Assembly (NCBI GenBank): GCA_022826505.1
Contig: JAJDUQ010000052.1
Location: 1-64,000 of the forward strand
DNA length: 64,000 bases
Direction of reading: 5' to 3'
Origin: Gammaproteobacteria bacterium
Lineage (GTDB): Bacteria > Pseudomonadota > Gammaproteobacteria > HK1
The notes under the pieces are model-generated. The model was given only the letters and a program-made list of their open reading frames with translations. It searched no databases and had not been told where the DNA came from. The number at the start of each line of letters is the position of its first letter. The stretch's first letter is position 1. A program made the translations under genes and the position numbers. This document shows positions 4,477 through 29,340 of the stretch, piece after piece.

Positions 4477-5168
4477 GCGGACACGAACATGCCGGCGGAC
4501 AGACGCACGGACACGAACGTCAGCACGCGCACGGTCACGGCGGATACGACGTGGATCCGACCCACCATCACCCGCCCCAGCCGGACATGGAAGACACCCC
4601 CCTCGCTTACCACCAGATCATGCAGATGGCGGTGGTGTCCCTCCTCATCGAGAAGGGGGTCGTCACCGCCGACGAGATGCGGGCGCAGGTCGAGCGGATC
4701 GACACATTCACCCCGGCCCGCGGCGCACGGCTCGTGGCCCGCGCCTGGATGGACGACGGGTTTCGCGAGCGGCTGCTGGCCGATTCGAAGACCGCCGCGG
4801 CGGAGACCGGCATCGACGTCGGACCCATACCGATACTCGTGATGGAGAACACACCCGAGACCCACAACGTCGTGGTGTGCACCCTTTGCTCGTGCTATCC
4901 GCGATTCCTGCTCGGCCGTCCTCCCGACTGGTACAAGTCGCGGAGCTACCGCAGCCGCACGGTGAGTGAGCCGCGCCGGGTGCTGGCGGAATTCGGAACG
5001 GAGATCGAGCCCGGCCGCCGGATTCGGGTCCACGACAGCACCGCCGACATGCGGTACATGATCCTGCCGATGCGCCCAGCCGGCACCGAGGACATGAGCG
5101 AGGAGGAGCTGGCGGAGATCGTCACTCGCGACAGCCTGATCGGGGTGACGGAACCACGAGTGAACTGA
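4473..5168 (+). CDS. scnC: thiocyanate hydrolase gamma / cobalt-type nitrile hydratase alpha-like subunit
   Basis: VVVCTLCSCYPRFLLGRPPDWYKS metal-binding motif; His-rich N-terminus; three-gene split layout. Confidence 0.75.
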   Translation: MSGHEHAGGQTHGHERQHAHGHGGYDVDPTHHHPPQPDMEDTPLAYHQIMQMAVVSLLIEKGVVTADEMRAQVERIDTFTPARGARLVARAWMDDGFRERLLADSKTAAAETGIDVGPIPILVMENTPETHNVVVCTLCSCYPRFLLGRPPDWYKSRSYRSRTVSEPRRVLAEFGTEIEPGRRIRVHDSTADMRYMILPMRPAGTEDMSEEELAEIVTRDSLIGVTEPRVN

Positions 5169-10543: not shown

Positions 10544-10828
10544 TCATCGGTGTTCGTCCTCGCCGAGGTCGGACCCGGGAGGTCCGCTACCGTGCACCCG
10601 ATGGGTCCACGTGTCGCGCTTGACCTTGATCCAGCTCCGGCACCCGGAGGTGTGCTGCCACCATTCGTTGTGAGGCCCGCGGGGGTTGTCGCGGATGTAG
10701 ACGTGATCGAGCCATTCCTCGGCAGAGACCGCATCGGGGTCGGCGGGTCGGTCAACCGTCGCGTCGCCCCCGTAGGTGAACTCGATGTGGGCGCGTGGCC
10801 CGCACCATGGACACGTAATCAGCAGCAT
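10544..10828 (-). CDS. soxD: sarcosine oxidase delta subunit
   Basis: MLLITCPWCGPRAHIEFTYGGDA...WLDHVYIRDNPRGPHNEWWQHTSGCRSWIKVKRDT. Confidence 0.95.
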   Translation of the reverse strand: MLLITCPWCGPRAHIEFTYGGDATVDRPADPDAVSAEEWLDHVYIRDNPRGPHNEWWQHTSGCRSWIKVKRDTWTHRVHGSGPPGSDLGEDEHR

Positions 10829-10886
10829 GCTGGTGGCTCCCTGTGGCTCGCTGCTACGCCGGTGTCGTGCAATCGAGTGGTCGCAG

Positions 10887-12149
10887 CTAGTGCGCCTGCG
10901 GACTGGCCCCGACGCCCTTCTCGTCGAGGATCTCGCCCCGGTGGAATCGGTCGAGCCGGAACGCCGCGTTGAGCGGATGCGGCTCGTCGTTGGCGATGGT
11001 CCAGGCGTGGCACCAGCCCGCCGCGGGGGTGGCCTTGAATCCGCCGTAGCACCAGCCGCCGTCGAGGTAGAGGCCCTTGACCGGCAGCTTGCCGAGGATC
11101 GGGCTGCCGTCCATCGTCATGTCCATCACCCCGCCCCAGGTCCGCATCAGCCGCAACCGACTGAGGAATGGGAAGAGCGAGATCGCACCCTGGATCACGT
11201 GTTCCAGCGTCGGCAGGTTTCCGCGCTGGGCGTAGGAGTTGTAGAAGTCCAGGCTGCCGCCCATCAGGATTTCGCCCTTGTCGGTCTGGCTGATGTAGCA
11301 GTGGGCCGCGCCGGAGGTCACCACCGTGTCGATGGCCGGCTTGAGCGGTTCGGTGACCGCCGCCTGCAGCACATGCGACTCGATGGGCAGCCGAATGCCG
11401 GCCATCGCCGCCAGACGCGAGCTGTTGCCCGCCACCGCGATGCCGACCTTCTTCGCCCCGATGTAGCCGCGCGTGGTCTCGATTCCGGCCACGCTGCCAT
11501 CATCGGTCCGGATGCCGGTGACCTCGCAGTTCTGGATGATGTCGATCCCGTACGAGTCCGCGCCCCGCGCAAATCCCCATGCCACCGCGTCGTGCCGGGC
11601 GGTCCCGCCGCGGCGCTGCACGAGTCCGCCGGTGACCGGAAAGCGCGCGTTGGGCGAGCAGTCGAGGAGCGGAACCATGGCCTGGACCTGGTCGACCGAG
11701 AGCCACTCCGCGTCGATGCCGTTCAGCCGCATCGCGTTGCCGCGGCGGCGTGCCCCGTCGATCTGGGAATCGTTGTGCGTGAGGTTCACCACCGCGCGCT
11801 GGCTGAACATCACGTTGTAGTTGAGATCGCTCGTGAGACCTTCCCACAGCTTCAGCGAGTGCTCGTAGAAGTGCGCGTTGGGCTCCAGCAGGTAGTTCGA
11901 GCGAACGATGGTGGTGTTGCGTCCGGTGTTGCCGCCGCCGAGCCAGCCCTTTTCCACCACCGCGACGTTGGTGAGGCCGTGGAGCTTGGCGAGGTAGTAC
12001 GCGGCCGCCAGTCCGTGACCGCCGGCGCCGACGATCACGACATCGTACTCGCGCTTGGGCTCCGGACTGCGCCACGCCAGCGGCCACCGCTGGTGGTGGC
12101 TCAGCGCATTTCTGGCAAGGCTGAAGATGGAATAGCGCACGCTTGGCAT
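10887..12149 (-). CDS. soxB: sarcosine oxidase beta subunit
   Basis: YDVVIVGAGGHGLAAAYYLAKLHGLTNVAVVEKGWLGGGNTGRNTTIVRSNYL. Confidence 0.95.
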   Translation of the reverse strand: MPSVRYSIFSLARNALSHHQRWPLAWRSPEPKREYDVVIVGAGGHGLAAAYYLAKLHGLTNVAVVEKGWLGGGNTGRNTTIVRSNYLLEPNAHFYEHSLKLWEGLTSDLNYNVMFSQRAVVNLTHNDSQIDGARRRGNAMRLNGIDAEWLSVDQVQAMVPLLDCSPNARFPVTGGLVQRRGGTARHDAVAWGFARGADSYGIDIIQNCEVTGIRTDDGSVAGIETTRGYIGAKKVGIAVAGNSSRLAAMAGIRLPIESHVLQAAVTEPLKPAIDTVVTSGAAHCYISQTDKGEILMGGSLDFYNSYAQRGNLPTLEHVIQGAISLFPFLSRLRLMRTWGGVMDMTMDGSPILGKLPVKGLYLDGGWCYGGFKATPAAGWCHAWTIANDEPHPLNAAFRLDRFHRGEILDEKGVGASPQAH

Positions 12150-12515
12150 CCCTGGATCCGGCCCGCGGTGAATATACACGCGATTGCCTCGAATTCACTG
12201 CGATTTCGGGAAATTCGCCGTAAACCGCGCCATCAGGACCGGACCAGCTTCGTACGGTTCCGGCGGGGGGCCGGAGCAGCCGAATGGAGACGTTCGAGGT
12301 GTAGCAAAATAGCTACAAGACGCAGACCGCATGCGCGCGGACGGGGATCTCGTCGGTCTCGACGAAATCGTCCACGTGGTTGGTGTGTGACATCGCCGGC
12401 CGTCGACTCGTTGACCGCATCTACACCCAGCCGCACCCGTCACGGCGCGGCTTGCAAGCATGTCCACGATTCGAAATCGAATTCCTCGACCGTCGCGTGA
12501 AGGGTGTGAAATGGA

Positions 12516-15230: not shown

Positions 15231-15366
15231 TGCGGGCGTCGTGCACGTAGTACAGGTACAGGAACGGCTCGTGCAGTGTCGCCAGGTCGTCGCGTTCGAG
15301 TTTCGCCCGTTCCAGGGTGCTCGACATGGAGCGGGGATGGCACCACAGGAAGACGAGCCTGTTCAC
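15231..15366 (-). pseudogene. N-terminal remnant of a sulfotransferase-family gene
   Basis: RLVFLWCHPRSMSSTLERAKLERDDLATLHEPFLYLYYVHD then unrelated sequence; GTG start overlaps RND stop (GTGA). Confidence 0.55.
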
Positions 15367-18300
15367 TCCTCGCCCCCCCGTCTTCCCGCATTCCAGGACA
15401 AGAAACGCTCGCGCCACGCCAGCAGGGCCGGTACGAAAAACAGGACGACGAGGGTCGAGAAGGCGAGCCCGAACGCAATCGTCACCGCTATCGGAATCAG
15501 AAACTGTGCCTGCAACGAGGTCTCGAACATGAGCGGGGTGAGACCCGCGACGGTCGTGAAGCTCGTCAGGAGCACCGCGCGAAGGCGCAGGCAGGCGGCC
15601 TCCTCGATCGCGGCGGCGCCCGGCAGGCGCTCCCGGAGCCCTTCGTAGAACGTGACGAGGACGATGGAGTTGTTCACCACGATCCCCGAGAGCGCGAAGA
15701 AGCCCAGTACGGAGAGCATGGACGCGTCGATATCCATCACGTAGTGGCCCACCAGCACCCCCACGAGACCAAACGGGATGGCGGTCATCACCAGCAGCGG
15801 CAATCCGTAGGAGCCGAAGACCCAGGCCAAGATGAGGAAGATCAGCGCCAGCGCGACGACGAGGCCCGTGCGCATGTCTCCAAGGGTCCGCTCCTCGGTC
15901 CTGCTCCGGCCCTCGAGCGAGTACTCGACGGTGTGACGGCGGCCGATCTCGGGCAGAATCCGCTCGAACAGCACCCGGTTGACGTCGCGCGCGGTCGTGA
16001 CCCGCGCATCGATGTTCGCGGTGACGTTGACCGCAAGCCGTCCGTCGGTATGGCGCAGCACGTCGAATCCGCGCCGGAAGCGGAGGTTCGCCACCGTGTC
16101 GAGGGGTACCGTCGCCCCGGACGGAGAGACGACCCCGACCGCGCCGAGGCTCGCGAGACGGTTGCGTTCCGCGTCCGGGAGCATCACCCGCACCTCGATC
16201 TCGGCGTCCTCGTCCTGGAAGACCTGCGCGAGACGTCCGTCGTACGCGGCACGGAGCTGTCTCCCCACATCCGCCACCGTGAACCCGAGCGCTTCACCCA
16301 CCGGCGTGAGCTCGAAGACGAGCTGCCTCCGACCATGCGGCATGTTGTCGGCGACGGAGAGGGCGCCCGGCACTGCGGCAAGGCGGACCACCATCTCGGA
16401 TGCCGCTGCCTTGAGGGTTGCGGGGTCGTGCCCGACGAGCTTCGTATCGCTGTCCGCGCCCGGGGGACCGATCGCGGCCTCCGAGATGACCACCGAATCG
16501 ACGCCCGGCCGATCCGGTACATGGCGTTCCCAGGCCTGCATGGCCTGCGCGTTGCGCGTCCGGCGGCGATCGGAGTCGACGAGCTGGACCGCCACCACCC
16601 CTTCGTCGGCTCCGAGCCGCACGTACGCAAGCCTGACGAAGTCCTCGCCGACCTCGCGCTCCGCCGCGCGCAGCGCCCGCTCGACCTCCAGCACGTAGGC
16701 CCGCATCCGCTCGCGCGGCGTCCCCGCAACGAACCGGACGTCGGCATGGACAAAGCTCGTCTCGGGCGTCGGAAAGAAGTGGAATTTGAGGTGGCCGCCA
16801 AGCACCAGACCAGCCGCGGCGAGCAGCATCGCCAGACCCAGGGCGAGGACGATGGCGGGCGCGGCCACCGCGCCGCGCACCATCGGCCGGAACACTCGCT
16901 CCCGAAACCGCTCGACTCCGGCGTCGATGGCGGTGCGCATCCGCCCGGCCCGTTCGCGGGGCGGGAAGTGGGCGCGCAGATGGCCAGGCAGGATCAGGAA
17001 GCATTCGACGACCGATGCCGCGATGACGCAGATCACCACCAGCGGGATCTGGAACAGGAACTGCCCGATGAACCCGCCCACCATGAGCAGCGGAACGAAC
17101 GCCGCGATCGTGGTCAAGGCCGCTGCCATGACGGGGACGAGCATGCGCCGTGCGCCACGTTCGGCCGCTTCGGCCGGCGCCGCTCCCCGCTGGAAATGCG
17201 CCAGCCCGTCCTCCCCGACCACGATTGCATCGTCGACGATGATGCCGATCGCCATGATGAACGCGATCAGGCTGACCATGTTGATGCTGCCGCCGGCCAG
17301 CCAGAGGGCGGCAAGCGCCGCCATGAAAGATACCGGGATCCCGATGGCTACCCAGAACGCTACCCGTCCGTTCAGCAGCAGAAACAGGATGACGAGCACG
17401 AGCACGAGCCCGCCGCCGCCGTTCTTCAGCAGCAGCGCGAGTCGATCCCACACGCGCGACCACGGCTCGTTCAGGACATGGATGGTCACGCTCGGGGGCA
17501 GCGCCGATTCGGCCCTTTCGAGCCAGTCGCGCAGCTTCTTCCCCAGCTCCAGGGTGTCGCCGGTGGTGCTGCGCTGAAGGTCGAACACCACCGCGGGCCG
17601 TCCCTCGTGGAGCACCTCGATCTGACTGGGCCGCGGGCGGCGCTCGAGCACCGCGACGTCCCTGATCTCGATCCGCCGTCCCCGCTCGTCGGCGAGCACC
17701 GGGATCCGTTCGAACTCCACTTCCCGGCGGCGCTGTGCGAGGGCGCGCAACTGAATCGCGAAGTCGTCACGCCCGACCGTCCCCGCCGGCATGTCCCGGC
17801 TGTACCGGTCCACACGGTCCGCGATTGCATCGAGCGAAAGGCCCAACTCACGCAAGGTCGCGCTCGCCACCTGGATCGCGACCTCTTCCTCCGGATCGCC
17901 CTCGATCTCCACCCGATCGATCCCGACATCCAGCAGATCGCGCTTGATGCCGCGTGCGAGGCGACGCAGCGCCACACGGCTCTCAGGGCCGGTGAGAAGC
18001 AACGTGGCGATGGTCTCGTAGACCTTGCGCTCAGCCACGGCGGGCGAGCCTGCGGACTCCGGCAGGCTGCGCATCGCGTCCAACCGATCCTTGATCTCGT
18101 CCACCGCCTCGTCGATGTCCGTCTCTTCCCGGAACTTCAGGCGCAGGGCGGTCCTGCCGTCGCTGGTGGTGGAGGTGATCTCGTCGAGTCCGTCGAGCGT
18201 GCGCAACTCCGCGTGAAGGGGCAGGGTAATCCGGTTCGCGACGTCCTCCGCCCCGGCGCCCGTCCAGGCCACATCAACCGTCACCACGGCTCGGGCCACG

Positions 18301-18410
18301 TCCGGGAGGTACTGGCGGTCGAGCTCGCCGAGGGCGACCGCACCCGCCAGGATCATCAGCGCCATGAGGAGATTCGGCGCCACCGGGTGGCGCACGAAGA
18401 GACCGATCAA
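15363..18410 (-). CDS. RND-family efflux permease (AcrB/HAE1-like)
   Basis: about 1015 aa; IAFIMAIGIIVDDAIVVGED, repeated TM clusters, typical RND layout. Confidence 0.92.
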   Translation of the reverse strand: MIGLFVRHPVAPNLLMALMILAGAVALGELDRQYLPDVARAVVTVDVAWTGAGAEDVANRITLPLHAELRTLDGLDEITSTTSDGRTALRLKFREETDIDEAVDEIKDRLDAMRSLPESAGSPAVAERKVYETIATLLLTGPESRVALRRLARGIKRDLLDVGIDRVEIEGDPEEEVAIQVASATLRELGLSLDAIADRVDRYSRDMPAGTVGRDDFAIQLRALAQRRREVEFERIPVLADERGRRIEIRDVAVLERRPRPSQIEVLHEGRPAVVFDLQRSTTGDTLELGKKLRDWLERAESALPPSVTIHVLNEPWSRVWDRLALLLKNGGGGLVLVLVILFLLLNGRVAFWVAIGIPVSFMAALAALWLAGGSINMVSLIAFIMAIGIIVDDAIVVGEDGLAHFQRGAAPAEAAERGARRMLVPVMAAALTTIAAFVPLLMVGGFIGQFLFQIPLVVICVIAASVVECFLILPGHLRAHFPPRERAGRMRTAIDAGVERFRERVFRPMVRGAVAAPAIVLALGLAMLLAAAGLVLGGHLKFHFFPTPETSFVHADVRFVAGTPRERMRAYVLEVERALRAAEREVGEDFVRLAYVRLGADEGVVAVQLVDSDRRRTRNAQAMQAWERHVPDRPGVDSVVISEAAIGPPGADSDTKLVGHDPATLKAAASEMVVRLAAVPGALSVADNMPHGRRQLVFELTPVGEALGFTVADVGRQLRAAYDGRLAQVFQDEDAEIEVRVMLPDAERNRLASLGAVGVVSPSGATVPLDTVANLRFRRGFDVLRHTDGRLAVNVTANIDARVTTARDVNRVLFERILPEIGRRHTVEYSLEGRSRTEERTLGDMRTGLVVALALIFLILAWVFGSYGLPLLVMTAIPFGLVGVLVGHYVMDIDASMLSVLGFFALSGIVVNNSIVLVTFYEGLRERLPGAAAIEEAACLRLRAVLLTSFTTVAGLTPLMFETSLQAQFLIPIAVTIAFGLAFSTLVVLFFVPALLAWRERFLSWNAGRRGGEE

Positions 18411-18602: not shown

Positions 18603-19523
18603 ATGCTGGGAAGCCCACTCTTTCGCGACCGGGCACTGATCCGCAGCGCACAGCCGGAGCCGCTCGACGATCTCCTGCGGGTCACCGCTCCGCACGAATG
18701 GCTGCTGCTCGCCTGCCTTGCCGCCACCCTGCTCGCCGCCGCCTTGTGGGGTGGTCTCACCCGCGTGGAGCAGACTGTGTCCGGGGCCGGCGCGCTCGTG
18801 CAACCGGGCGAGCGTTACGCCGTAGTCTCCGCCGCATCGGGGGTCGTCACGGAAGTCACGGCGGAAGTGGGGGATCGGGTCGAGGCCGGTGAGGAGATCG
18901 CCCGTCTCGATCTGCCGGAGCTTCGCTGGCGTCTGCGGATCTCCCGCGCGCGGGTCGCCCTGCTCGAGGAACGGGCGAGGAGTCCGGAGGCTCCGCCCGG
19001 AAGCTGGCTGGATGCGGAGCTGGCCGCCGCCCGCGCGGAAGTGCTCGAGCTCGCGGCCCTCGACACGGCCGGAGCCGTCATCGTCAGCCCGCGTGCCGGC
19101 GAGATCACCGCGAACGGCCTCGTCGCAGGACAGGCGATCGGCGTCGGCGAGTCGGTGGCCGAGGTCCGCACCGGCCTCCGCCGCGAACCGGAAGCAGTCC
19201 TGTTCGTCGCGCCCGAGCAGAGCCGGCGCATCGACGCCGGCATGAAGGCGAGGGTCACGGTCACGGACCGATCCGGCGCCCGGGTCTTTGCCGGCGAGGT
19301 CGCCGAGGTATCCGCGCGGCCGGTGGATCTTCCCTCGTGGCTCTCGCGGATCGGAGTTGTGTCGTCCGAGGCGCCCGGTTCTCCCCGCCATCTGGTCAGG
19401 CTGACCGTGCGCGGCGCCGGAGATGCGCGGATGCCGGACGGTGTGCCGTGCCGGGTCGAGATCGTGGTGGCGCGGCGCTCGCCGCTCGGTCTGCTGGTGT
19501 CGTCGGCCGGGCGCCCGCGGTGA
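18603..19523 (+). CDS. NHLM-type bacteriocin/RiPP system secretion protein (HlyD-like membrane fusion protein)
   Basis: SGAGALVQPGERYAVVSAASGVVTEVTAEVGDRVEAGEEIARLDLPELR; precedes two ABC genes; nested at the 3' end of a spurious 1415-aa ORF. Confidence 0.8.
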   Translation: MLGSPLFRDRALIRSAQPEPLDDLLRVTAPHEWLLLACLAATLLAAALWGGLTRVEQTVSGAGALVQPGERYAVVSAASGVVTEVTAEVGDRVEAGEEIARLDLPELRWRLRISRARVALLEERARSPEAPPGSWLDAELAAARAEVLELAALDTAGAVIVSPRAGEITANGLVAGQAIGVGESVAEVRTGLRREPEAVLFVAPEQSRRIDAGMKARVTVTDRSGARVFAGEVAEVSARPVDLPSWLSRIGVVSSEAPGSPRHLVRLTVRGAGDARMPDGVPCRVEIVVARRSPLGLLVSSAGRPR

Positions 19524-19575
19524 AGGGCGCAGCGCGCCCGGCCGTCGAGCGCATCCGCTGTCCGTCGGTGCGCTG

Positions 19576-21798
19576 ATGGCGGCCGGACGAATGCACACCG
19601 GCGCCTCGCATGCTTCGTGCGCACCTCGCGGGCGGAGGCGGGTGCGCACCCCGGTGGTGATGCAGCTCGAAGCCACCGACTGCGGCGCCGCCTGTCTCGG
19701 GATCGTGCTCGCCCACTTCGGACGCCGGGTCTCGCTGGAGGAGCTGCGCGAGGCATGCGGGGTCGGGCGCGACGGCTCCAACGCGGAGGACCTCGTCCGC
19801 GCCGCCCGGCGCTACGGGGTGGAGGGCACCGGGTGGCGCCGGGAGATCCATCAGCTCGCGACGATGCCCCTGCCCATGATCCTCTTCTGGGGGTTCAACC
19901 ACTTCGTCGTCCTCGAAGGTATCGGCGAAGACCGCTGGTTTCTCAACGATCCGGCGGTCGGCCATCGGGTCGTCGACCGGGACACTTTCGACCGCGACTT
20001 CACCGGTGTCGCGCTGGCCTTCGAGCCCGGGGAGACGTTCCGGCCGGGCGGCGATCCGCCCGGAGTCCTGCCGCGGCTGTGGCCGTGGCTGCGCGAGTTC
20101 AAGGCGTCCCTGGTCTTCGCCGCGCTGTGCGGGCTGCTCCTCGTGGTGCCGATGCTGGCGCTGCCGCTGCTGCTCTCGGTCTTCGTGGACCACGTGCTCG
20201 GAAGCGGTCAGGCCGACTGGGGCGCCGCCATGACCGGTGCGATGGCGGCGGCCGGCGGGGCGACCTGGCTGTTGACCTGGCTGCAGATGCGTTCGCTGCG
20301 CAAGCTGACCGTTCGCCTGTCGATCGACCGGTCGGACCGCTACATCACCCGGCTCCTGCGGCTTCCCATGCAGTTCTTCGCCCACCGGTACGCGGGCGAT
20401 CTGGCGTCGCGGGTCCAGTTGATCGACCAGGTCGCAGAGGTCGGGGCGAGTCAGTTGACGGGCCTGGCGATCGAGCTCCTGATGAGCATCGCCTTTCTCG
20501 CGCTCATGCTCGCCTGGGACCTCCCACTGGCGCTTGTCGTCGCCGCGCTGGGCGCACTGTGCTTGTCGGCAATGCGCCTGACGGGCCGTCTTCGCAGGGA
20601 TCAGAACCATCGGCTGCGCCGCGATCAGGGTCTGCTTCAGGGCGTGGGCATGGCGGGGCTGCACGCCGTCGATACGCTGCGGGCGACGGCGCGCGAAGAC
20701 GACTTCTTCTCGCTCTGGAGCGGCCGTCAGGCGACCGAGCTGCAGGCCCGGCAGAAGTTCGCGGAGCTCGGTCACCTGACCCTGGCGCTCCCCGCCCTGT
20801 TCCATCTGCTCGGCGCGGCCGTCGTGCTCGGCGTCGGCGGGTGGAGGGTGATGTCGGGCGAGATGAGCACCGGCATGCTGATGGGCTTCTACGTCCTGGC
20901 CGTGAACTTCCTCAATCCCATCGGCCGTTTCGCGCGGTTCTCGGACCAGCTCGAGACGCTGGGAGCGGACCTGCAGCGCCTGGACGATGTCTTCGACGCC
21001 CCGGAAGATCCGGAGTTCGACGCCGGGGAAGCCGAACCATCCCGGAGCATCGTGACCTTCGCGGGACGCCTGCGCCTGAGCGGAGGGCTGGAGATGCGCG
21101 GCGTCACGTTCGGCTTCCAGCGCAACCGCCCGCCGCTCGTCGAGAACCTGAACCTGACGATCGAGCCCGGACAACGGGTGGCGGTGGTGGGGCCGAGCGG
21201 CTCGGGCAAGACCACGCTCGCGCTTCTGGCCGCGGGCATGTACCGGCCGTGGTCCGGCGAGATCCTCTTCGACGGGCACGTTCGCGATGCGATCCCTCGC
21301 GAGGTGCTGACCGCCTCCGTGTCCGTCGTCGATCAGCACGCCGTTCTGTTCGCGGGGACGGTGCGCGACAACCTGACGATGTGGAATGCGCAGACCCCCG
21401 ATGAACACCTGACCGCCGCCACTCGGGACGCGGCGATTCACGAGGAGATCATCGCCCGCCCGCTCGGCTACGACTCTCACGTGGAGGAGGGAGGGCGCAA
21501 CTTCAGCGGCGGGCAGCGCCTGCGCCTGGAGATCGCCCGCGCGCTCGTCAACAACCCCACGCTGCTGATCCTGGACGAAGCCACGAGCGCCCTGGATACG
21601 CTCACCGAGCTGCAGGTGGACGACAACCTGCGGCGCAGGGGCTGTAGCTGCCTCATCATCGCGCACCGGCTGAGCACCATTCGCGATGCCGACCGGATCA
21701 TCGTCCTGAATCGGGGCCGCGTGGTCGAAGAGGGGACCCACGAAGCGCTGATGGCGGTCGAGGACAGCTTCTACGGCAGGTTCCTCCGTGGCCAGTGA
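19576..21798 (+). CDS. NHLM-type RiPP export ABC transporter with N-terminal C39 peptidase
   Basis: C39 triad Cys (DCGAACLGIVL), His (NHFVVLEG), Asp (LNDPAVG); Walker A GPSGSGKTT; signature FSGGQ; ILDEATSALD. Confidence 0.92.
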   Translation: MAAGRMHTGASHASCAPRGRRRVRTPVVMQLEATDCGAACLGIVLAHFGRRVSLEELREACGVGRDGSNAEDLVRAARRYGVEGTGWRREIHQLATMPLPMILFWGFNHFVVLEGIGEDRWFLNDPAVGHRVVDRDTFDRDFTGVALAFEPGETFRPGGDPPGVLPRLWPWLREFKASLVFAALCGLLLVVPMLALPLLLSVFVDHVLGSGQADWGAAMTGAMAAAGGATWLLTWLQMRSLRKLTVRLSIDRSDRYITRLLRLPMQFFAHRYAGDLASRVQLIDQVAEVGASQLTGLAIELLMSIAFLALMLAWDLPLALVVAALGALCLSAMRLTGRLRRDQNHRLRRDQGLLQGVGMAGLHAVDTLRATAREDDFFSLWSGRQATELQARQKFAELGHLTLALPALFHLLGAAVVLGVGGWRVMSGEMSTGMLMGFYVLAVNFLNPIGRFARFSDQLETLGADLQRLDDVFDAPEDPEFDAGEAEPSRSIVTFAGRLRLSGGLEMRGVTFGFQRNRPPLVENLNLTIEPGQRVAVVGPSGSGKTTLALLAAGMYRPWSGEILFDGHVRDAIPREVLTASVSVVDQHAVLFAGTVRDNLTMWNAQTPDEHLTAATRDAAIHEEIIARPLGYDSHVEEGGRNFSGGQRLRLEIARALVNNPTLLILDEATSALDTLTELQVDDNLRRRGCSCLIIAHRLSTIRDADRIIVLNRGRVVEEGTHEALMAVEDSFYGRFLRGQ

Positions 21799-24736
21799 GG
21801 CGGGCCGCCGCGGCCCGGGTCCGGGACCGCTCGCGGAGTACGCGGCTCGCGCCGGCGAGCTTCGTGTGTCCGCGGCGAACCGGCCGGTCGAGCTGAGAGA
21901 TCCCGAGGTCGCCTGGCTCGTCGTCCGCGGTGCGCTCGATGTCTCGGTTGCGGAGTACGCGGACGGCCGGGTTCTGTCGGCGTTCAGGCACGTGCTGCGT
22001 CTCGGGCCGGGTCGCCTCGCATTCGGAGCCGGCAACGGAGGGACGGAACGCGGCTTCAAGCTCGTCGGGAAGGGCCTGCCGGACTCCCGGCTGTACCGGA
22101 TCCCGATCCCTCCCCTGCTCGACGAGGTCGCGAAGGATCCGGGCGGGGCGGACCTCGCCCAGGCGCTGGCCGTCGGGGCCGACGCCTGGGTCGAGGACTT
22201 CGCGGGAGCTGTCGCGCGGGCGGTGGCACCGCGTCCGCCCTCCGTGCTCCAGATCGAGCCTGGACAGGATGCGCAGGCGCTGACCACCGGCATCCTGACG
22301 GCTCGCCACGGAGTGGTGTGGATCCGCGGCGAGGCCCTGGAGGCCGCCTTCCTCGAGACGGAGGATGCCGGCGCCGAGGGACCGGGCCTGATGCCGGTCA
22401 CGCCGGATGCATGGATAGCGCTGCGTCGCACGGAGGGCATCGCCTGCGTCTCCTCCGCCGAGCTGGACCCCGGCATCCTGGTGCGGCGGGCGCTGCCGGA
22501 GTTTCACCGGCTGGCGTTCGGCGCCGAGGCGAGCAACCGCCGGCTGATGCTGGCGGACGAAGCCAATCTGCAGGCGGCGCAGGTCGTTCAGCGCCGCCGC
22601 GAAGAGGCCGCCGCGAGGCGGAGTCTGGAGGCCCTGTCCCGCGCGCGTGCGGAAGACCCGGCCGCCGACAGAAGCGCGCTGGTGGCCGCGTTGCAGGCGA
22701 TCGGCCGGCACGAGGGCATCTCCATCCGGACCCCGGTGGTGGGCGAGGGCCTGGAGCCGTCCCTGGACGACATCGTGCGGGCGTCGGGGGTGCGCGCCCG
22801 GCGCGTGCGGCTGTCCGCAGAGGCTCGGTGGTGGCTCGGGGACAGCGGCGCCATGCTGGCTTTCCGTCGCGAGGACGACCGGCCCGTGGCCCTCCTTCCG
22901 GGCGCGGGTGGCCGGTATCGGGTCCTCGACCCGACCACCGGGCGGTCGGAGCGCGCCGACGCCGGCACCACCGGGGAGCTCCTCGAGGATGCGCGGCTGC
23001 TGTACCGGACGTTGCCGAACGACCGGCCCGCCGGCGTGGGGGACCTCGCCGCCGTCGCCGGCGGCGGGCGCGTGGCCGGCGACCTGGTCCGTCTCGCGGT
23101 GGCGGGTGTCGGCGCCGGGATTCTGGCCCTCGCCCCGGCGGTGGCGGTCAATGTGCTGATCGGCTCCGTGATTCCGTCCGGCGACCCGGGCGCGCTCGTC
23201 CAGCTCGCGGGGGTGCTCGTCGGGCTCTCGTTCATGGCCGCCTTGTCGCAGCTTTTCCGCGGTACGGCGCTGATGCGCCTGGAAGGCCGGATGGTGGCCC
23301 GGATGAGCGCCGCGCTCTGGGACCGACTGCTGCGCCTGCGGCCGCGGTTCTTCCGCGGCTTCACCTCGGGTGAGCTCGCCTCGCGGGCGGCGGCCTTCCA
23401 GGAGCTGCGCGACCGGGTGTCCGGGGCGGTGGCCGACGCTCTGCTGTCGGTGCTGTTTCTGCTGCCGATGTTCGCGCTGCTCTTCCACTACGACACCGCG
23501 CTCGGCTGGCTGACCCTGGGCCTGGGCCTCGCGGCGCTGGCCCTCACGTCGCTCGTCGTCGGACTTCTCCTCGGTCCGCAGCGGCGTCACGTCGAGATGA
23601 CGCGCGAGCTCGCGGGCGAGTTGTTCCAGTTCATCAACGGCATCGGCAAGCTGCGCACCACCGGAACCGAAGGGTCGGCCTTCGCCGCCTGGGCACACCG
23701 ATACCGGGAGCTGAAACGGGCCTGGATCCGCATCTCCGTGCTCACCGAGTACGCCACCGCGTTCAGCGCCGCGGTGCCCGCGCTGGCCGGCGCTGCGCTG
23801 TTTGCGGTCGCGCTGCGGCAAGGCAAGGGTGGGCTCGCGCCCGCCGACTTCCTCGCCGTCTACACCGCTTCGATGGTGTTCTACATGGCCATGGTGCGGC
23901 TCGGCCAGTCGCTCCAGGCCGTCGCCACCATCGTGCCCGGGTGCGAGCAGGTGCACCCCATCGTTCGGGCCAGGCCCGACTCCGCGCCCGGCGGCGGCGC
24001 ACGGGTCACGCTCCAGGGCGAGATGGCCTTCCAGCGCATCAGCTTCCGCTACTCCGAACGCGGTCCGATGGTGCTCCGGGACGTCACCATCCACGTCAGG
24101 CCCGGTGAGCTCGTCGCCATCGTGGGGGAATCCGGGGTCGGCAAGAGCACGCTGTTCCGCATCGCCCTCGGTCTCGAAGAGCCGTTGTCGGGGGCGGTGT
24201 ACTACGACGGGAAGGACCTCGCCCACCTGGACCGCGATGCGGTGCGCCGGCAGGTCGGCGTGGTCACGCAGGAGGGCCGTCTCCAGGGCGGCAACGTGCT
24301 CGACAACATCATCGGCGTCACGAACGACCTGGGCGTGGACGACGCCTGGCGTGCCGCCCGCCGGGCGGCGGTCGAACGCGACATCGCCGCGATGCCGATG
24401 CAGATGCTCACCACCGTGGGCGAGAACGCATCGACCTTCTCCGGGGGGCAGATCCAGCGGATCCGCATCGCGGCGGCCCTGGTGCACGAGCCGCGCATCC
24501 TCCTTCTCGACGAGCCCACCAGTTGGCTCGACACGATGAGCCAAGCCGAGACCATGGAAGGCATCGAGAAGTCCGTCGGCACCCGGATCGTGATCGCCCA
24601 TCGTCTGTCCACCATCCGCAAGGCGGATCGCATCTACGTGCTCCAGGACGGGCGCGTGGTGCAGGCCGGGGAGTTCGAGGAGCTGCTGGGGCAGGAGGGT
24701 CCGTTCCGCGATCTGGCCCGGCGGCAGATGGTCTAG
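21788..24736 (+). CDS. NHLM-type RiPP export ABC transporter, second permease/ATPase subunit
   Basis: Long N-terminal domain, TM domain, GESGVGKST, FSGGQIQRIRIAAAL, LLLDEPTSWLD; GTG start overlaps preceding gene. Confidence 0.9.
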   Translation: MASEAGRRGPGPGPLAEYAARAGELRVSAANRPVELRDPEVAWLVVRGALDVSVAEYADGRVLSAFRHVLRLGPGRLAFGAGNGGTERGFKLVGKGLPDSRLYRIPIPPLLDEVAKDPGGADLAQALAVGADAWVEDFAGAVARAVAPRPPSVLQIEPGQDAQALTTGILTARHGVVWIRGEALEAAFLETEDAGAEGPGLMPVTPDAWIALRRTEGIACVSSAELDPGILVRRALPEFHRLAFGAEASNRRLMLADEANLQAAQVVQRRREEAAARRSLEALSRARAEDPAADRSALVAALQAIGRHEGISIRTPVVGEGLEPSLDDIVRASGVRARRVRLSAEARWWLGDSGAMLAFRREDDRPVALLPGAGGRYRVLDPTTGRSERADAGTTGELLEDARLLYRTLPNDRPAGVGDLAAVAGGGRVAGDLVRLAVAGVGAGILALAPAVAVNVLIGSVIPSGDPGALVQLAGVLVGLSFMAALSQLFRGTALMRLEGRMVARMSAALWDRLLRLRPRFFRGFTSGELASRAAAFQELRDRVSGAVADALLSVLFLLPMFALLFHYDTALGWLTLGLGLAALALTSLVVGLLLGPQRRHVEMTRELAGELFQFINGIGKLRTTGTEGSAFAAWAHRYRELKRAWIRISVLTEYATAFSAAVPALAGAALFAVALRQGKGGLAPADFLAVYTASMVFYMAMVRLGQSLQAVATIVPGCEQVHPIVRARPDSAPGGGARVTLQGEMAFQRISFRYSERGPMVLRDVTIHVRPGELVAIVGESGVGKSTLFRIALGLEEPLSGAVYYDGKDLAHLDRDAVRRQVGVVTQEGRLQGGNVLDNIIGVTNDLGVDDAWRAARRAAVERDIAAMPMQMLTTVGENASTFSGGQIQRIRIAAALVHEPRILLLDEPTSWLDTMSQAETMEGIEKSVGTRIVIAHRLSTIRKADRIYVLQDGRVVQAGEFEELLGQEGPFRDLARRQMV

Positions 24737-24860: not shown

Positions 24861-25970
24861 TCACCCCTGCGGCCGCACCGGCACGCAGCGCAGCCCGGTA
24901 TACGCCTTGGCGCGCACTCCGCCTTGCTCGACCAGGAGCTTGACGTGATTGATGCCCAGGTAGAGGAGATGGACGCCCCTGGCACCATACAGTTGCCGGA
25001 CTCCGGGCCACGCGAGCAGGCCACGCGCTTTCTCCGGGAGACACCAGCCGCACGCCTGCAGCCGCTCCACAACCGGTCTCCAGTCCTCGATGTCCGTCGC
25101 GAGCCAGTCGTCCTCCCGATCCCATTTCTCCCTGACGAACAGCTCCACCCCCAGACGCGGTGCCGTTCCATGGGCGGAGACATCCACCGACAGCCGGAAG
25201 CGGCTGCAAATGTCCCGGAAGTCGCTCAGAGCCGAGACCACGACGTCGGAGTCACCGGACCATTGCACGCATTCCAGGAAACCGGGGACCTCCGCTCTTT
25301 CGAGTCGCTGAACCAGTATCCGGAGCGCCCGCGGCGCGCGGCCCGGCAACGCCCCGATATGGGCCACCTCGCCGCCCGCCGGCAGGGCGTCGAAGGCTCG
25401 CTGCACCGCGCGCCGCTCCCCTTCGTCCGGCTCCCACCCCACCGCCGCGGCGATTCCGGCCGCCGCGGTGCGGGGACTGCAGTGATGCGGGTCCTTGCGT
25501 TCCGGGGTGCGCGTGCGCCGCGTCTTCAGGAACACGCCGGGCGCAGCCCCTCCCCGCGCGACCTCCGCCACGTCGTACTCGAGGGTCATCCCGTTGTTCC
25601 AGTCGGCCACCGAATTGCCTCGGGACGGTCCATCGGGGTCCATCAAGACGAGATGCCGGGCGAGCCCTGCGGCCGCCGGACTCGCTTCGTCCGTCGTTCC
25701 CCGCCGGATGTAGTACCGGGCCAGGACCTGCCCCGGGATGACCACGACGAAGAAGTCCGCTGCGGGTGCCGGGGCGTCGAGCCGGAACTCGAAGCCGCAC
25801 CGGGACGCGACCCCCTTCTCCGGAAGTCCGCCAATGCGGTCAAGGAGTCGAGTCCACTCCGGGCCACCGATCAGTTCGCGCGGGATGAATGCGCGCAACG
25901 CCTCGAGGAGCGCTCCGAACTTCCCGCCGGCGCGGGCTTCGACCGTTGCGGGCGCCTTGCCATCGGACAT
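24861..25970 (-). CDS. uncharacterised protein, candidate RiPP-associated enzyme
   Basis: about 369 aa (MSDGKAPATVEARAGG...ARYYIRRG...GINHVKLLVEQGGVRAKAYTGLRCVPV); between ABC genes and cyclase-like gene. Confidence 0.7.
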   Translation of the reverse strand: MSDGKAPATVEARAGGKFGALLEALRAFIPRELIGGPEWTRLLDRIGGLPEKGVASRCGFEFRLDAPAPAADFFVVVIPGQVLARYYIRRGTTDEASPAAAGLARHLVLMDPDGPSRGNSVADWNNGMTLEYDVAEVARGGAAPGVFLKTRRTRTPERKDPHHCSPRTAAAGIAAAVGWEPDEGERRAVQRAFDALPAGGEVAHIGALPGRAPRALRILVQRLERAEVPGFLECVQWSGDSDVVVSALSDFRDICSRFRLSVDVSAHGTAPRLGVELFVREKWDREDDWLATDIEDWRPVVERLQACGWCLPEKARGLLAWPGVRQLYGARGVHLLYLGINHVKLLVEQGGVRAKAYTGLRCVPVRPQG

Positions 25971-25981
25971 CGTGCGTTCCG

Positions 25982-27055
25982 TCAGGCTCGCATGGCCCGG
26001 GCCATCGCCCCGATGCAGCACGCGGTGGTCAGCGCCTCGGATGAAAACCGGCCGTCAACGCCGGGTCGGCATTTCCAGATCAGGCACTCCGGCCAGCCGC
26101 CATTGGCGTGTTGCGCCTCCAGCACCCCTTCCAGCGCGCGCCGCACCACCTCCTCTTCCCCGGTGGCTTGCAACTGGACCAGCGCCGTCACCGCCTGCGC
26201 CAAGCGATACGCGTCGATGGTTTCGCCGCCCGCTTCGAGCCACCCCACGATCCGTGCGGCCAGCGTGGCGCGCAACCGGGCGAATACCGGCGGGGCGAGG
26301 CGGCTCGCGCGTGCCATCGCCGCGTACAGATCCATCGTCGAGAGGTAGTAGGGCGACGTGCCCGGTTCGCGCCCCTCCTCGACCAGCTTTGCGAGCCACC
26401 ACTGCGCTGCCCGGGTCTCCGGCCGGTCGCCGAGGTAGGCGAGGACGTTCGCGTTGACGACCGAATCCACCAGGTTCGGGGAGGACTCGGGCACGTCCCC
26501 GGAGGCCATCCGGGCGGATTCTGTTGCGTGGAATGGTTTCAGACGTTGGCCCCGGCGGACCATCCACGTTCGGAAACGTCCTTCATCGTCGCGGCAGGAC
26601 AATATCGGCCCGACGTTGCGTCCCATCAAGACCCAGAGATGCGACCCGGCGGCGACCGAACAAAGCACCGTGTCGTCCAGGTCGGGAACCAGTTGGGGAT
26701 AGTACCGCCATACCCCCGGATACTCGATGCGGGAGTGCAGGAATGCGCGGCTTCTCGAGCCTAGGGCCGCGGCCCTGGAAGTGCCGCACGCCTCCAGGGC
26801 CAGTATGCCGGCGGCTGCAGCGAAAGGCGTCCGCTCGGGCACCACCAATCGGCCGCCGTCATGGATTCCGAAGGCAGGCCAAGCTCCTTCCGCCCCGATG
26901 ATCGCGTCCAGAAAGCGGAGCCCGGACTCCACCGCTCGTGCCATTGCTTCCCGCAGAAACCGGTATCCCGGCCCGCGCATGGGCTGCCTCTTCTTCACCC
27001 GCTCCGATGTCTGCGGCTCCGGAGCGAGCGATACGTCGAAATCGGAAGGCGCCAA
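25982..27055 (-). CDS. terpene cyclase / prenyltransferase-squalene-oxidase-repeat-like alpha-barrel protein
   Basis: LVPDLDDTVLC resembles class II cyclase DxDD(T/A); QW-like repeat QHANGGWPECLIWK; RFLDAIIGAEGAWPAFG. Confidence 0.65.
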   Translation of the reverse strand: MAPSDFDVSLAPEPQTSERVKKRQPMRGPGYRFLREAMARAVESGLRFLDAIIGAEGAWPAFGIHDGGRLVVPERTPFAAAAGILALEACGTSRAAALGSRSRAFLHSRIEYPGVWRYYPQLVPDLDDTVLCSVAAGSHLWVLMGRNVGPILSCRDDEGRFRTWMVRRGQRLKPFHATESARMASGDVPESSPNLVDSVVNANVLAYLGDRPETRAAQWWLAKLVEEGREPGTSPYYLSTMDLYAAMARASRLAPPVFARLRATLAARIVGWLEAGGETIDAYRLAQAVTALVQLQATGEEEVVRRALEGVLEAQHANGGWPECLIWKCRPGVDGRFSSEALTTACCIGAMARAMRA

Positions 27056-27120
27056 GCCATTTCGGTTTGTGCGAACACCGTAAGGGGTGGCCTCCGCACA
27101 TCAAGACCGTGTTGTCACGA

Positions 27121-27387
27121 TTACCATCCGCTAGCGTCAAAGTCGTCGTTGCTGCCGCCGCTCACCCGCGCCATCTCTGCGTCCGTGAGGCGATTGCTCC
27201 TGGGAAGGACCAGGTGCGCGGCCGTGCTGTCCTCTTCGTGCACGTGAACCGTCAGCCCCTCGGGGATGGTCACCCCCAGCTCCTCCTTGAGCACGTTGTG
27301 CGGATCATCAAGCAGTCGTGCCCGGAACTCCACGTCTTCGGCCGCCTTGGCGAGGAGCTCAGCCTGCATCTGTTCGGCAGTTTTCAT
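27121..27387 (-). CDS. NHLP-leader RiPP precursor peptide (predicted core SNDDFDASGW)
   Basis: LLAKAAEDVEFRARLLDDPHNVLKEELGVTIPEGLTVHVHEEDSTAAHLVLPRS..LTDAEMARVSGG|SNDDFDASGW; GG site matches C39 peptidase. Confidence 0.88.
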   Translation of the reverse strand: MKTAEQMQAELLAKAAEDVEFRARLLDDPHNVLKEELGVTIPEGLTVHVHEEDSTAAHLVLPRSNRLTDAEMARVSGGSNDDFDASGW

Positions 27388-27460
27388 GGTCGCTCTCCGT
27401 TGTCGGTTCGGAACTTTTCAGAGGGGGTGTCATGGTAGAATGCAATCATCAGGAAAGGCA

Positions 27461-27492
27461 ATTCGCGAACGAAGTCATTCGCGAACGAAGTC
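27461..27492. repeat. perfect 16-bp tandem direct repeat (attcgcgaacgaagtc x2)
   Basis: Two exact adjacent copies upstream of the precursor gene. Confidence 0.9.
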
Positions 27493-27660
27493 AGCGGCAA
27501 TCCGGCACGACACCGTACCAGCACTTCGGATACCATCGCGTATGGGGTTTCATGCTCGCGCGAACGTCTCCTTCGGACGCATGTCCACGCCGGACGCAGC
27601 GCCCGCATTCCATTCGAGACTAGCGTATCATCAACGTCCGGACGGACTTGGCCTGCTGTG

Positions 27661-27921
27661 ATGAAGCGTCGTACCACCCCGCCTTCCGCACCCCCTCTGG
27701 AGGCGACGGCGTCCGGGAATCTCCTGCGGGGCGGGACACCGATCGTGTCCTTTGCCCACCGGACCGCCTTCCAACAGGAAGCGGATTACCTGCTGGCTCT
27801 GTCCGCCGGTGATGCAGCCCGCCCCGTTCCACGTATCAGCATCAAGATCGTCGCGGACGCCCTCGCCCGGGAGCCGGAAGGAACGACGGCTTCGGAGAAA
27901 TTGGACGAGCCGCGTGGCTGA
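27661..27921 (+). CDS. hypothetical small protein
   Basis: 86-aa ORF upstream of and co-directional with the oxygenase; no motif recognised. Confidence 0.35.
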   Translation: MKRRTTPPSAPPLEATASGNLLRGGTPIVSFAHRTAFQQEADYLLALSAGDAARPVPRISIKIVADALAREPEGTTASEKLDEPRG

Positions 27922-27999: not shown

Positions 28000-29340
28000 A
28001 TGTCTCTCCTGCAACCGGACCCTGCGCAGTCCGAGCCCCGTGATTCCTCGCCGGTCGAGGTGCTCGTGGCAAGCCCCGAGCGGCTCGGAACGGCGCCTGG
28101 GCTCGACGGCATCGTCCGACCACTCTCCACGCAGGAGTTCATCGACACCCGCTACCGGGACAAGCGCGCGGTCCTGTTCCGCTCGGAGAGCCCGCGCTTC
28201 GCCTCCCTGTGCACCTGGGAGGAGCTCAACGAGCTGCTCCTTCTGGGCTTCGGGCAGGGCCGAATGCGCCTCGTCCGGGACGGCGGGCCGATCGCCGAGC
28301 GCAACTACACCACCCCGAAATTCGGCCACGGATGGAGAGGGCCGCGCGAGGGCGAAGTCCGGCTCGACGACCGGCGGCTGACCGCCTTTCTGCGCAAGGG
28401 CGCCACCGCTATCCTGCGCGGGATCGAGGATTTCCATCCCCCCGTTCGTCTCCTGGTCGATACCTTCGAGGAAGCCCTGGGCAGCTACACCGGAGTCAAC
28501 CTCTACGCCTCATGGGCGGCGACCCGAGGCTTCTCGACGCACTGGGACGACCACGACGTGTTCATCCTCCAGGTCGCCGGTGCAAAGCGTTGGCACCTCT
28601 ACGGCGAAACCCGCCGCTTTCCGCTCATCATGGATTCGGAAGCGAACCTGACGCCGCCTCCGGAGAGGGTGTGGAGCGAGGTCCTCCGGGCGGGCGATGT
28701 CCTCTACATACCGCGGGGCTGGTGGCACGACGCCCGCACCGAGGCCGTCGATGGCGCCGGCGGCACAGGAAGCCTGCACCTCACCGTCGGCGTCATCTCG
28801 GTCACCGGGTTCGACTTCATGGCGTGGCTCTCCGGCCGGCTCGCCCGTCACGAGGCGTTCCGCCGCGACCTCCCCCACCCTTCCGACGTGACTGGCGACG
28901 CCCACTACGCAGCACTCCGGGAGCTCGTCCTCGAAGAGCTTGGCGGAGACGCCGGACGGAGGTTCCGCAGCCACCTGCGCTCCACCTGGTCCGAGCACCC
29001 GCGCACGACACTCGGCCCATACCTCGAGCCCTGGAAGTCTCCCGACTGGGAGAGTCACGGAATCCGGCTCCGAGGCGCCCGGTATGCGACGCTGGAGCGG
29101 AACGCCGACGGGGACACGGTGCTGGAGGCGAACGGCTACCGCTGGACCTTCGACCCTCGGTGCATGGAGCTGATCGTTCCCCTGATCCAGGGCGGAACGG
29201 TGAGGGTCGGCACCTTCCGGGAAGCGGCCCCGGAGGGCGCTCCGGCATCGCTCGCCGACGAGTTCCTCGTGCTGCTGGTCGAACGCGGGATCGCGCACTG
29301 CGTTCCGCCGGACCCCGCTTTCGACCCGAGCACTGAATGA
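28000..29340 (+). CDS. JmjC/cupin-4-type 2-oxoglutarate/Fe(II) oxygenase
   Basis: GVNLYASWAATRGFSTHWDDHDVFILQVAGAKRWHLY ... GDVLYIPRGWWHDA; ribosomal-oxygenase-like fold signature. Confidence 0.85.
   Translation: MSLLQPDPAQSEPRDSSPVEVLVASPERLGTAPGLDGIVRPLSTQEFIDTRYRDKRAVLFRSESPRFASLCTWEELNELLLLGFGQGRMRLVRDGGPIAERNYTTPKFGHGWRGPREGEVRLDDRRLTAFLRKGATAILRGIEDFHPPVRLLVDTFEEALGSYTGVNLYASWAATRGFSTHWDDHDVFILQVAGAKRWHLYGETRRFPLIMDSEANLTPPPERVWSEVLRAGDVLYIPRGWWHDARTEAVDGAGGTGSLHLTVGVISVTGFDFMAWLSGRLARHEAFRRDLPHPSDVTGDAHYAALRELVLEELGGDAGRRFRSHLRSTWSEHPRTTLGPYLEPWKSPDWESHGIRLRGARYATLERNADGDTVLEANGYRWTFDPRCMELIVPLIQGGTVRVGTFREAAPEGAPASLADEFLVLLVERGIAHCVPPDPAFDPSTE

What the first reader, a model, noticed from the sequence alone, without database searches (positions are those of the whole stretch)
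27121..27387. NHLP precursor with an unusually short 10-residue predicted core, SNDDFDASGW
The leader shows NHLP hallmarks (DxxFRxRLLxDPxxxLxEELGVxIPEGLxVxVxEE...HLVLP...LTDAEMARVSGG), ending at a double glycine. The remaining core is only SNDDFDASGW. It is acidic, lacks Cys and Thr, and has one Phe and one C-terminal Trp. This argues against lanthionine or azole chemistry and suggests Asp hydroxylation, aromatic modification or macrocyclisation.
Basis: partly seen in the sequence, partly recalled or inferred. Interest (0 to 1): 0.85.

Follow-up and report, generated by a model that had tools for sequence, protein, structure and literature searches.

The report
Peptide probably capped with cyclised terpene
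A short bacterial peptide precursor ends in a tryptophan that is probably decorated with an isoprenoid chain and then folded into a terpene ring by two enzymes encoded right behind it, and related bacteria carry arrays of such precursors with different peptide sequences in front of the same final residue.

Summary
Window 27387..27121 (minus strand) encodes an 88-aa NHLP-leader RiPP precursor (TIGR03793, 69.4 bits, cut-off 50.9) ending ...VSGG/SNDDFDASGW. The second gene (P4, 24861-26021) has no family match. Its AlphaFold model matches only ABBA/DMATS aromatic prenyltransferases among the first 46 PDB hits. [quoted passage not shown] P4 homologues elsewhere lie beside NHLP precursors with hypervariable, Cys-free cores. 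Of 86 different cores, 52 end in Trp, against 7 (maximum 22 in 2000) after shuffling. The closest relative (P4 62% identical) has the same gene order. Best explanation: P4 prenylates the C-terminal Trp, P3 cyclises the chain, and the C39 transporter cuts after GG and exports the product. Both chemistries are known in RiPPs (PalQ; NctPC), so this is a new variant: separate enzymes, an NHLP leader and combinatorial cores. No activity is shown. 'Unusually short' is not special: related cores run from 7 to 28 residues.

The parts
27121..27387 (-). NHLP-leader RiPP precursor, 88 aa (P0002)
   Evidence: translation; TIGR03793 over cut-off
27154..27387 (-). NHLP leader, residues 1-78, ending ...LTDAEMARVSGG (L-x4-M where the relatives have L-x4-L)
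   Evidence: LxxxxL role from PMC10858898
27124..27153 (-). predicted core SNDDFDASGW; predicted prenyl acceptor is the terminal Trp88
   Evidence: C-terminal Trp conserved across relatives
27393..27398 (-). GGAGAG, ribosome-binding-site-like
   Evidence: upstream sequence printed
25982..27055 (-). P3 (P0003): stand-alone class II terpene cyclase-like alpha/alpha barrel, 357 aa, TTG start proposed
   Evidence: Foldseek top 28 all class II terpene cyclases; profile match to drimenol synthase and squalene-hopene cyclase
26672..26683 (-). P3 motif DLDD (residues 125-128); D127 is the predicted proton donor, invariant in the family
   Evidence: aligns with the residue changed in AsDMS D333N
24861..26021 (-). 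P4 (P0004): ABBA-fold aromatic prenyltransferase-like protein, 386 aa from GTG 26021, or about 369 aa from ATG 25970
   Evidence: AlphaFold pTM 0.84; Foldseek; no sequence family
28000..29340 (+). JmjC_2/Cupin_4 2-oxoglutarate oxygenase (P0006), divergent from the precursor; adjacent to P3 in three sister genomes
   Evidence: PF08007; NO66/MINA match with HxD...H; conserved in the islands
19423..21798 (+). NHLM ABC1: C39 peptidase/permease/ATPase (leader removal and export)
   Evidence: TIGR03796 901 bits over cut-off; catalytic DCG, H and D seen
21788..24736 (+). NHLM ABC2 permease/ATPase
   Evidence: TIGR03797 694.9 bits (just under the cut-off of 709.4)
18642..19523 (+). NHLM HlyD-type adaptor (start uncertain; profile match to TIGR03794 positions 1-113 only)
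15363..18410 (-). RND (AcrB-type) permease, also present at the edge of the sister islands; role in this system not shown
   Evidence: PF00873; 52% identity to L060 998-4153

Best explanation
This is a small RiPP gene set that makes a terpene-capped peptide. (1) The NHLP leader of P0002 recruits the enzymes. [quoted passage not shown] (3) P3, a single-domain class II terpene cyclase, protonates the far end of the attached chain through D127 and closes it into one or more rings, as MstE does on prenylated hydroxybenzoate. (4) The JmjC oxygenase may hydroxylate the peptide or the terpene. (5) The C39 domain of ABC1 cuts after SGG and the ABC1/ABC2/HlyD complex exports the product, SNDDFDASG-W*. 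Shown here: the genes, the leader family, the predicted folds, the conserved catalytic Asp, the co-occurrence, and the C-terminal Trp signature across relatives. Inferred: every reaction, the chain length, the position on the indole, and the order of steps.
For: P4: AlphaFold pLDDT 80, pTM 0.84, with strands and helices in five alpha-alpha/beta-beta repeats. The first 46 Foldseek PDB hits are all aromatic prenyltransferases (CloQ 3.6e-6, DMATS1, CymD, AmbP1/3, NphB, PagF, FgaPT2), followed by noise. Basic and aromatic residues (R239, R245, H370, K372, K383, Y385 in the numbering) are near-invariant in about 55-60 homologues. P3: the first 28 Foldseek hits are class II terpene cyclases, including MstE bound to prenylated hydroxybenzoates. 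The profile aligns its invariant Asp with the drimenol-synthase residue mutated in D333N. A Nostoc plasmid protein fuses the same cyclase domain to a UbiA prenyltransferase and a PhyH oxygenase. Linkage: the closest relative L076 (Rhodobacteraceae MAG contig, P4 62% identical) has precursor, precursor, P3, P4 and a convergent ABC2 end, as here, and the tree pairs it with the window P4 at 100/99. Substrate: G300, G301 and G303 carry 16-19 precursor matches each; 52 of 86 different Cys-free cores end in W and 78 contain W, against a shuffled mean of 7.3 and maximum of 22. Donor supply: two polyprenyl synthases elsewhere in the genome. Precedent: PalQ/PalX (PMC10853753); NctPC as cited in PMC13290415.
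Against: No enzyme activity, product or expression has been seen. P4 has no sequence relative of known function, and TM-scores to known prenyltransferases are modest (0.33-0.57). The P3 model is weaker (pLDDT 71, only six sequences). Most P3 homologues have DLDS rather than DLDD. Not all P4-linked precursors end in Trp: a clade ends in Tyr (APTxDSY), SAR202 ones in VNIS/YPI, and Nostoc UHCC 0926 cores have no Trp. The window core ends GW, whereas 37 of 52 relatives end in NW or DW. P4 also lies in LCCCW clusters beside a halogenase, so a terminal Trp alone does not name the chemistry.
Confidence: 0.68

Rival explanations
1. P4 prenylates the C-terminal Trp but P3 does not cyclise the chain; P3 is an inactive or structural alpha/alpha barrel (for example a leader-binding chaperone), and the product is a linear prenyl peptide like PalX.
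For: P3 homologues in G304, G311 and G314 are fused to an NHLP-leader-like N-domain, which could mean a protein-interaction role; the second Asp of the DxDD motif is Ser in most homologues.
Against: The proton-donor Asp is invariant in 11 diverse sequences and aligns with the drimenol-synthase residue mutated as D333N; the Nostoc UbiA-cyclase fusion keeps DLDDT.
Confidence: 0.17
2. The P4 target is another residue (Asp or Ser side chain, Phe83 or the backbone carboxylate), or several residues, and the terminal Trp is needed for something else, such as oxidation by the JmjC enzyme.
For: Some P4-linked cores lack a terminal Trp; ABBA enzymes in cyanobactins modify Ser, Thr, Tyr, His and Arg (PMC12715784).
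Against: Trp is the only residue enriched at a fixed place: 52 of 86 cores end in it and 78 of 86 contain it. Asp and Phe positions are not shared, and SGWDTW in L076 has no Phe.
Confidence: 0.1
3. The precursor and its neighbours are a decayed or silent remnant of the large arrays of the sister genomes, with no product.
For: This genome has one such precursor against 16-19 matches in sisters.
Against: All frames are open, P4 and P3 keep their conserved residues, the C39 triad is present, and the same compact order occurs in the distant relative L076.
Confidence: 0.05

Closest known systems
PalX/PalQ of Paenibacillus alvei (PMC10853753)
   Same: NHLP precursor with a short core ending in Trp (DNVRRFFW); a peptide prenyltransferase acts on that C-terminal Trp.
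   Different: PalQ is of the isoprenoid-synthase superfamily, not an ABBA barrel, and PMC10853753 describes the cluster as three genes (histidine kinase, precursor, prenyltransferase) with no cyclase.
NctPC and ChrPC systems (Hubrich et al. 2024, doi 10.1016/j.chempr.2024.07.026; not held, read through PMC13290415)
   Same: Trp prenylation followed by class II (MstE-like) terpene cyclisation on a ribosomal peptide; the NctPC P domain is an ABBA barrel of low similarity to cyanobactin prenyltransferases.
   Different: There the two domains are one fused protein; here they are separate genes with an NHLP leader, a C-terminal Trp, no lanthionine synthetase seen, and arrays of precursors. Whether P4 and P3 are sequence relatives of NctPC could not be tested.
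srp clusters of sponge microbiomes (SrpE, SrpC, SrpI; PMC10858898, PMC10286304)
   Same: NHLP precursors with a terminal Trp. Clusters with the same LCCCW core occur in the same bacterial family and also carry P4 and P3 homologues.
   Different: The window core has no Cys, and no YcaO or halogenase homologue was found in the window.
MppC lanthipeptide prenyltransferase (PMC12715784)
   Same: ABBA-type enzyme, leader-dependent, geranylates Trp.
   Different: Nif11 leader, works on a LanM-made macrocycle, no cyclase reported in the text read.
Cupin-4 plus NHLP gene-cluster families of sponge microbiomes (PMC9426513)
   Same: NHLP precursor with a PF08007-type oxygenase, noticed there by genome mining.
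   Different: No prenyltransferase or terpene cyclase role was proposed in the passages read.

Membership tests
NHLP-leader RiPP precursor (TIGR03793) | Leader profile over the curated cut-off, ending in a GG-type site | tested here: met
   69.4 against 50.9 bits; VSGG
NHLP-leader RiPP precursor (TIGR03793) | NHLM export genes (ABC1 with C39 peptidase, ABC2, HlyD) nearby | tested here: met
   ABC1 over the cut-off; ABC2 and HlyD below their cut-offs but best matches
ABBA-fold aromatic prenyltransferase (P4) | Ten-strand barrel of alpha-beta-beta-alpha repeats | tested here: met
   predicted model only:
ABBA-fold aromatic prenyltransferase (P4) | Sequence similarity to a characterised member | tested here: not met
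   no Pfam or NCBIfam hit, no PDB profile hit at E <= 1
ABBA-fold aromatic prenyltransferase (P4) | Transfers a prenyl group to Trp | not testable with these tools
   needs an enzyme assay
Class II terpene cyclase, MstE/drimenol synthase type (P3) | Single alpha/alpha barrel matching solved class II cyclases | tested here: met
Class II terpene cyclase, MstE/drimenol synthase type (P3) | Proton-donor Asp of the DxD[D/T] motif | tested here: met
   DLDD here; third position invariant
NctPC-type fused prenyltransferase-cyclase | Both domains in one polypeptide | tested here: not met
   two separate ORFs, 27055-25982 and 26021-24861
NctPC-type fused prenyltransferase-cyclase | Sequence homology to NctPC | not tested
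   the NctPC sequence and paper are not held
PalQ-type Trp prenyltransferase | Isoprenoid-synthase fold with the first aspartate-rich motif | tested here: not met
   P4 models as an ABBA barrel
srp proteusin cluster | Cys-rich core with YcaO cyclodehydratase and brominase | tested here: not met
   no Cys in the core; no homologue of the L066-L071 YcaO or halogenase in the window

The most novel reading that the evidence does not exclude
A combinatorial peptide-terpenoid system. Bacteria of this family and other marine MAGs carry arrays of up to about 19 NHLP precursors with unrelated cores, most ending in Trp, served in trans by a few stand-alone ABBA prenyltransferases and one stand-alone class II cyclase. 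The result would be a library of peptides each capped by a polycyclic indole-terpenoid; the window holds a minimal one-precursor version.
Probability: 0.5. Interest if true: 0.78.

Novelty: new variant of a known kind. Interest (0 to 1): 0.62.

Why it matters
If true, P4 is a prenyltransferase family without a known sequence relative that tolerates very different peptides as long as they carry the leader and a terminal Trp, and P3 is a cyclase that closes terpenes on a peptide. Together they would be a two-enzyme tool for adding cyclic terpenes to the C-terminus of chosen peptides. It would also assign a function to precursor arrays in marine symbiont-type genomes, and it predicts that srp-type LCCCW clusters, studied for bromination, may carry a prenylation and cyclisation step as well.

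Tried and rejected
Lanthionine or azole chemistry: no Cys or Thr in the core and no YcaO homologue in the window. Reading the plus-strand ORFs 24924-26348 and 26861-27661 as genes: no family match, and conservation follows the minus-strand ORFs. The precursor as single query in genome contigs found nothing. A P4 alignment of all 18 sequences was too diverse for a pattern scan; a five-sequence one worked. Control set of unrelated NHLP precursors from 300 genomes of the phylum: apart from the window's own genome only weak, long-frame matches below the cut-off, probably nitrile hydratase subunits, so not usable. Small controls instead: G306, same family without P3/P4, has a core without Trp; Tistrella plasmid cores contain Trp but do not end in it. 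The founding paper on isoprenoid-cyclised RiPPs is not held, so whether it lists relatives of this locus is unknown. The names P3 and P4 are mine.

Full report
OBSERVATION. The described ORF is real and lies on the minus strand, 27387 to 27121. It matches the NHLP leader family over its curated cut-off (69.4 against 50.9 bits) and ends ...LTDAEMARVSGG followed by SNDDFDASGW and a stop. Its G+C by codon position fits the neighbouring genes, and a GGAGAG precedes the ATG.

SURROUNDINGS. Downstream on the same strand follow P3 (27055-25982) and P4 (26021-24861; an ATG at 25970 would start it about a dozen bases after the P3 stop). Neither passes any Pfam or NCBIfam cut-off; P3 has only a weak squalene-hopene cyclase match. 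Convergent to them lie HlyD, ABC1 with a C39 peptidase, and ABC2 of the NHLM export type. The peptidase has its DCG cysteine, histidine and aspartate. On the other side, divergent, is a JmjC_2 oxygenase related to NO66, MINA and YcfD, with the iron-binding HxD...H pattern. An RND permease (15363-18410) lies beyond the transporter and recurs in sister islands.

WHAT P4 IS. An alignment of 18 homologues gave an AlphaFold model with pTM 0.84 and five repeats of two helices and two strands. Foldseek against the PDB lists 46 aromatic prenyltransferases of the ABBA/DMATS kind before the first unrelated hit: CloQ, DMATS1, AnaPT, AmbP1/3, CymD, NphB, EpzP, PagF, FgaPT2. By sequence there is no PDB match at E <= 1. 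TM-scores are modest (0.33-0.57), so this is a fold assignment, not a close relationship. Near-invariant basic and aromatic residues (R239, R245, H370-x-K372, K383-x-Y385) would suit diphosphate binding; that is inference.

WHAT P3 IS. The model is weaker but its first 28 hits are all class II terpene cyclases, among them MstE in complex with farnesyl- and geranylgeranyl-dihydroxybenzoate, that is, an enzyme that cyclises a chain attached to an aromatic ring. A profile of eleven homologues aligns across about 270 positions with drimenol synthase. The residue of P3 that is invariant in the family (D127, third position of DLDD) falls on the Asp that reads Asn in the D333N structure of that enzyme. 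The other Asp positions are less strict: DLDD here and in L076, DLDS or EVDS elsewhere. A Nostoc sp. C052 plasmid protein joins the same domain, with DLDDT, to a UbiA prenyltransferase and a PhyH oxygenase, independent evidence that the domain works on prenylated molecules.

THE FAMILY OF PRECURSORS. Sister genomes G300, G301 and G303 have 16, 19 and 18 precursor matches, most in islands that also hold several P4 copies, one P3 and the JmjC gene. A scan with P4 reached 27 loci in MAGs labelled Alpha- and Gammaproteobacteria, Binatia, Spirochaetia, Chloroflexi and Acidobacteria; nearly all hold NHLP precursors close by. Their leaders are alike and their cores are not: after the GG, for example, GDWNITSDW, FERHEGFYNINW, ARPRGQEWDPRTW, ELTWAAYRRATSHW. 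Over all sets, 86 different Cys-free cores give 52 ending in W and 78 containing W; shuffling the same residues gives 7.3 W-terminal cores on average and at most 22 in 2000 trials. Many cores are related to each other, so this is a measure of pattern, not an exact probability. In 37 of 52 the residue before W is Asn or Asp; the window has Gly. Precursors far from any P4 in G300, G301 and G303 also mostly end in W, so the enzymes probably act in trans.

CLOSEST RELATIVE. L076 (JAPOOS010000109.1, labelled Rhodobacteraceae MAG) has two precursors (cores LLPSVSY and SGWDTW), P3, P4 and then the end of a convergent ABC2: the order of the window. The tree joins the two P4 proteins at 100/99. The core sequence is not conserved between them; a terminal aromatic residue is.

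LIMITS OF THE PATTERN. One P4 clade is linked to cores ending in Tyr (APTxDSY), SAR202 relatives have cores such as VDVNWDTVNIS, and Nostoc UHCC 0926 cores lack Trp. Distant P4 relatives occur in a Nif11/LanM cluster of Pseudanabaena, in a protein whose C-terminal part is annotated as a 2OG-Fe(II) oxygenase, with a core ending PPIKW, and in Azospirillum B510 beside NHLP precursors at least two of which end in W. The acceptor residue may therefore vary across the family; for the window Trp88 is the best candidate.

RELATION TO KNOWN SYSTEMS. C-terminal Trp prenylation of an NHLP peptide with an 8-residue core is known from PalX/PalQ (PMC10853753), by an enzyme of another fold. Prenylation of Trp followed by MstE-like cyclisation is known from NctPC, a fused ABBA-cyclase protein, and from ChrPC (as described in PMC13290415; the original paper is not held). 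Leader-dependent Trp geranylation by an ABBA enzyme is known from MppC (PMC12715784). Sponge srp clusters carry NHLP peptides with LCCCW cores that are brominated on Trp (PMC10858898). Clusters with exactly that core in G304, G311 and G314 also hold P4 and leader-fused P3 homologues, which the papers read here do not mention. Cupin-4 plus NHLP families were noted in sponge metagenomes (PMC9426513). The window system is therefore a new variant of a known kind. It differs in having two separate enzymes, an NHLP leader, no ring-forming peptide step, and combinatorial cores.

VERDICT. The precursor is real beyond reasonable doubt. That P4 is an ABBA-fold prenyltransferase I hold at about 0.9; that it acts on Trp88 at about 0.7; that P3 cyclises the chain at about 0.6. 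Chain length, indole position, the role of the JmjC enzyme and the biological use of the product are unknown. A sponge or other host association is inferred only from the srp-type relatives in the same family.

Noticed in passing
window 4113-5165 (+): An ORF with two successive NHLP-leader-like stretches (45 and 51 bits) rather than one leader and a core; a similar double protein lies on G000:C222 (L075 1902-2510).
   Followed up: no
L066 5741-7168, L067 15837-18146, L068 5591-6967: P3-like cyclases carry an NHLP-leader-like domain at the N-terminus, as if the leader fold were reused as an enzyme domain.
   Followed up: partly
L066, L067, L068 (G304, G314, G311): srp-type clusters (core LCCCW) hold P4 and P3 homologues, together with a Trp-halogenase-type gene (L066 15326-16762 and its homologues). 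The srp papers read here do not mention a prenyltransferase.
   Followed up: partly
L106 3760-7449 (Nostoc sp. C052 plasmid pC052_D): One 1230-aa protein joins PhyH oxygenase, UbiA prenyltransferase, a P3-like class II cyclase and TPR repeats; annotated only as a TPR protein.
   Followed up: partly
L103 5974-7776 (Pseudanabaena galeata plasmid pPg_03): A P4-like domain in a protein annotated as 2OG-Fe(II) oxygenase, in a Nif11/LanM lanthipeptide cluster whose precursor ends in Trp.
   Followed up: partly
L145 5001-6483 (Paenibacillus cellulosilyticus plasmid): Five unannotated NHLP-type precursors in a row, four ending RKxxWx and one FIWT (Trp next to last).
   Followed up: no
L077, L078, L080, L081, L083: Identical or near-identical cores (for example FERHEGFYNINW, ARPRGQEWDPRTW) in chromosome-level MAGs labelled as different phyla and classes: recent transfer or wrong labels.
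   Followed up: no
L060 4881-6524 and counterparts in L063, L065: A DUF4143/AAA_14 ATPase gene sits inside the precursor islands of the three sister genomes.
   Followed up: no
window 10544-12179 (-): A sarcosine oxidase delta subunit gene (PF04267) and an FAD-dependent oxidoreductase (DAO) gene next to each other, probably sarcosine oxidase subunits.
   Followed up: no
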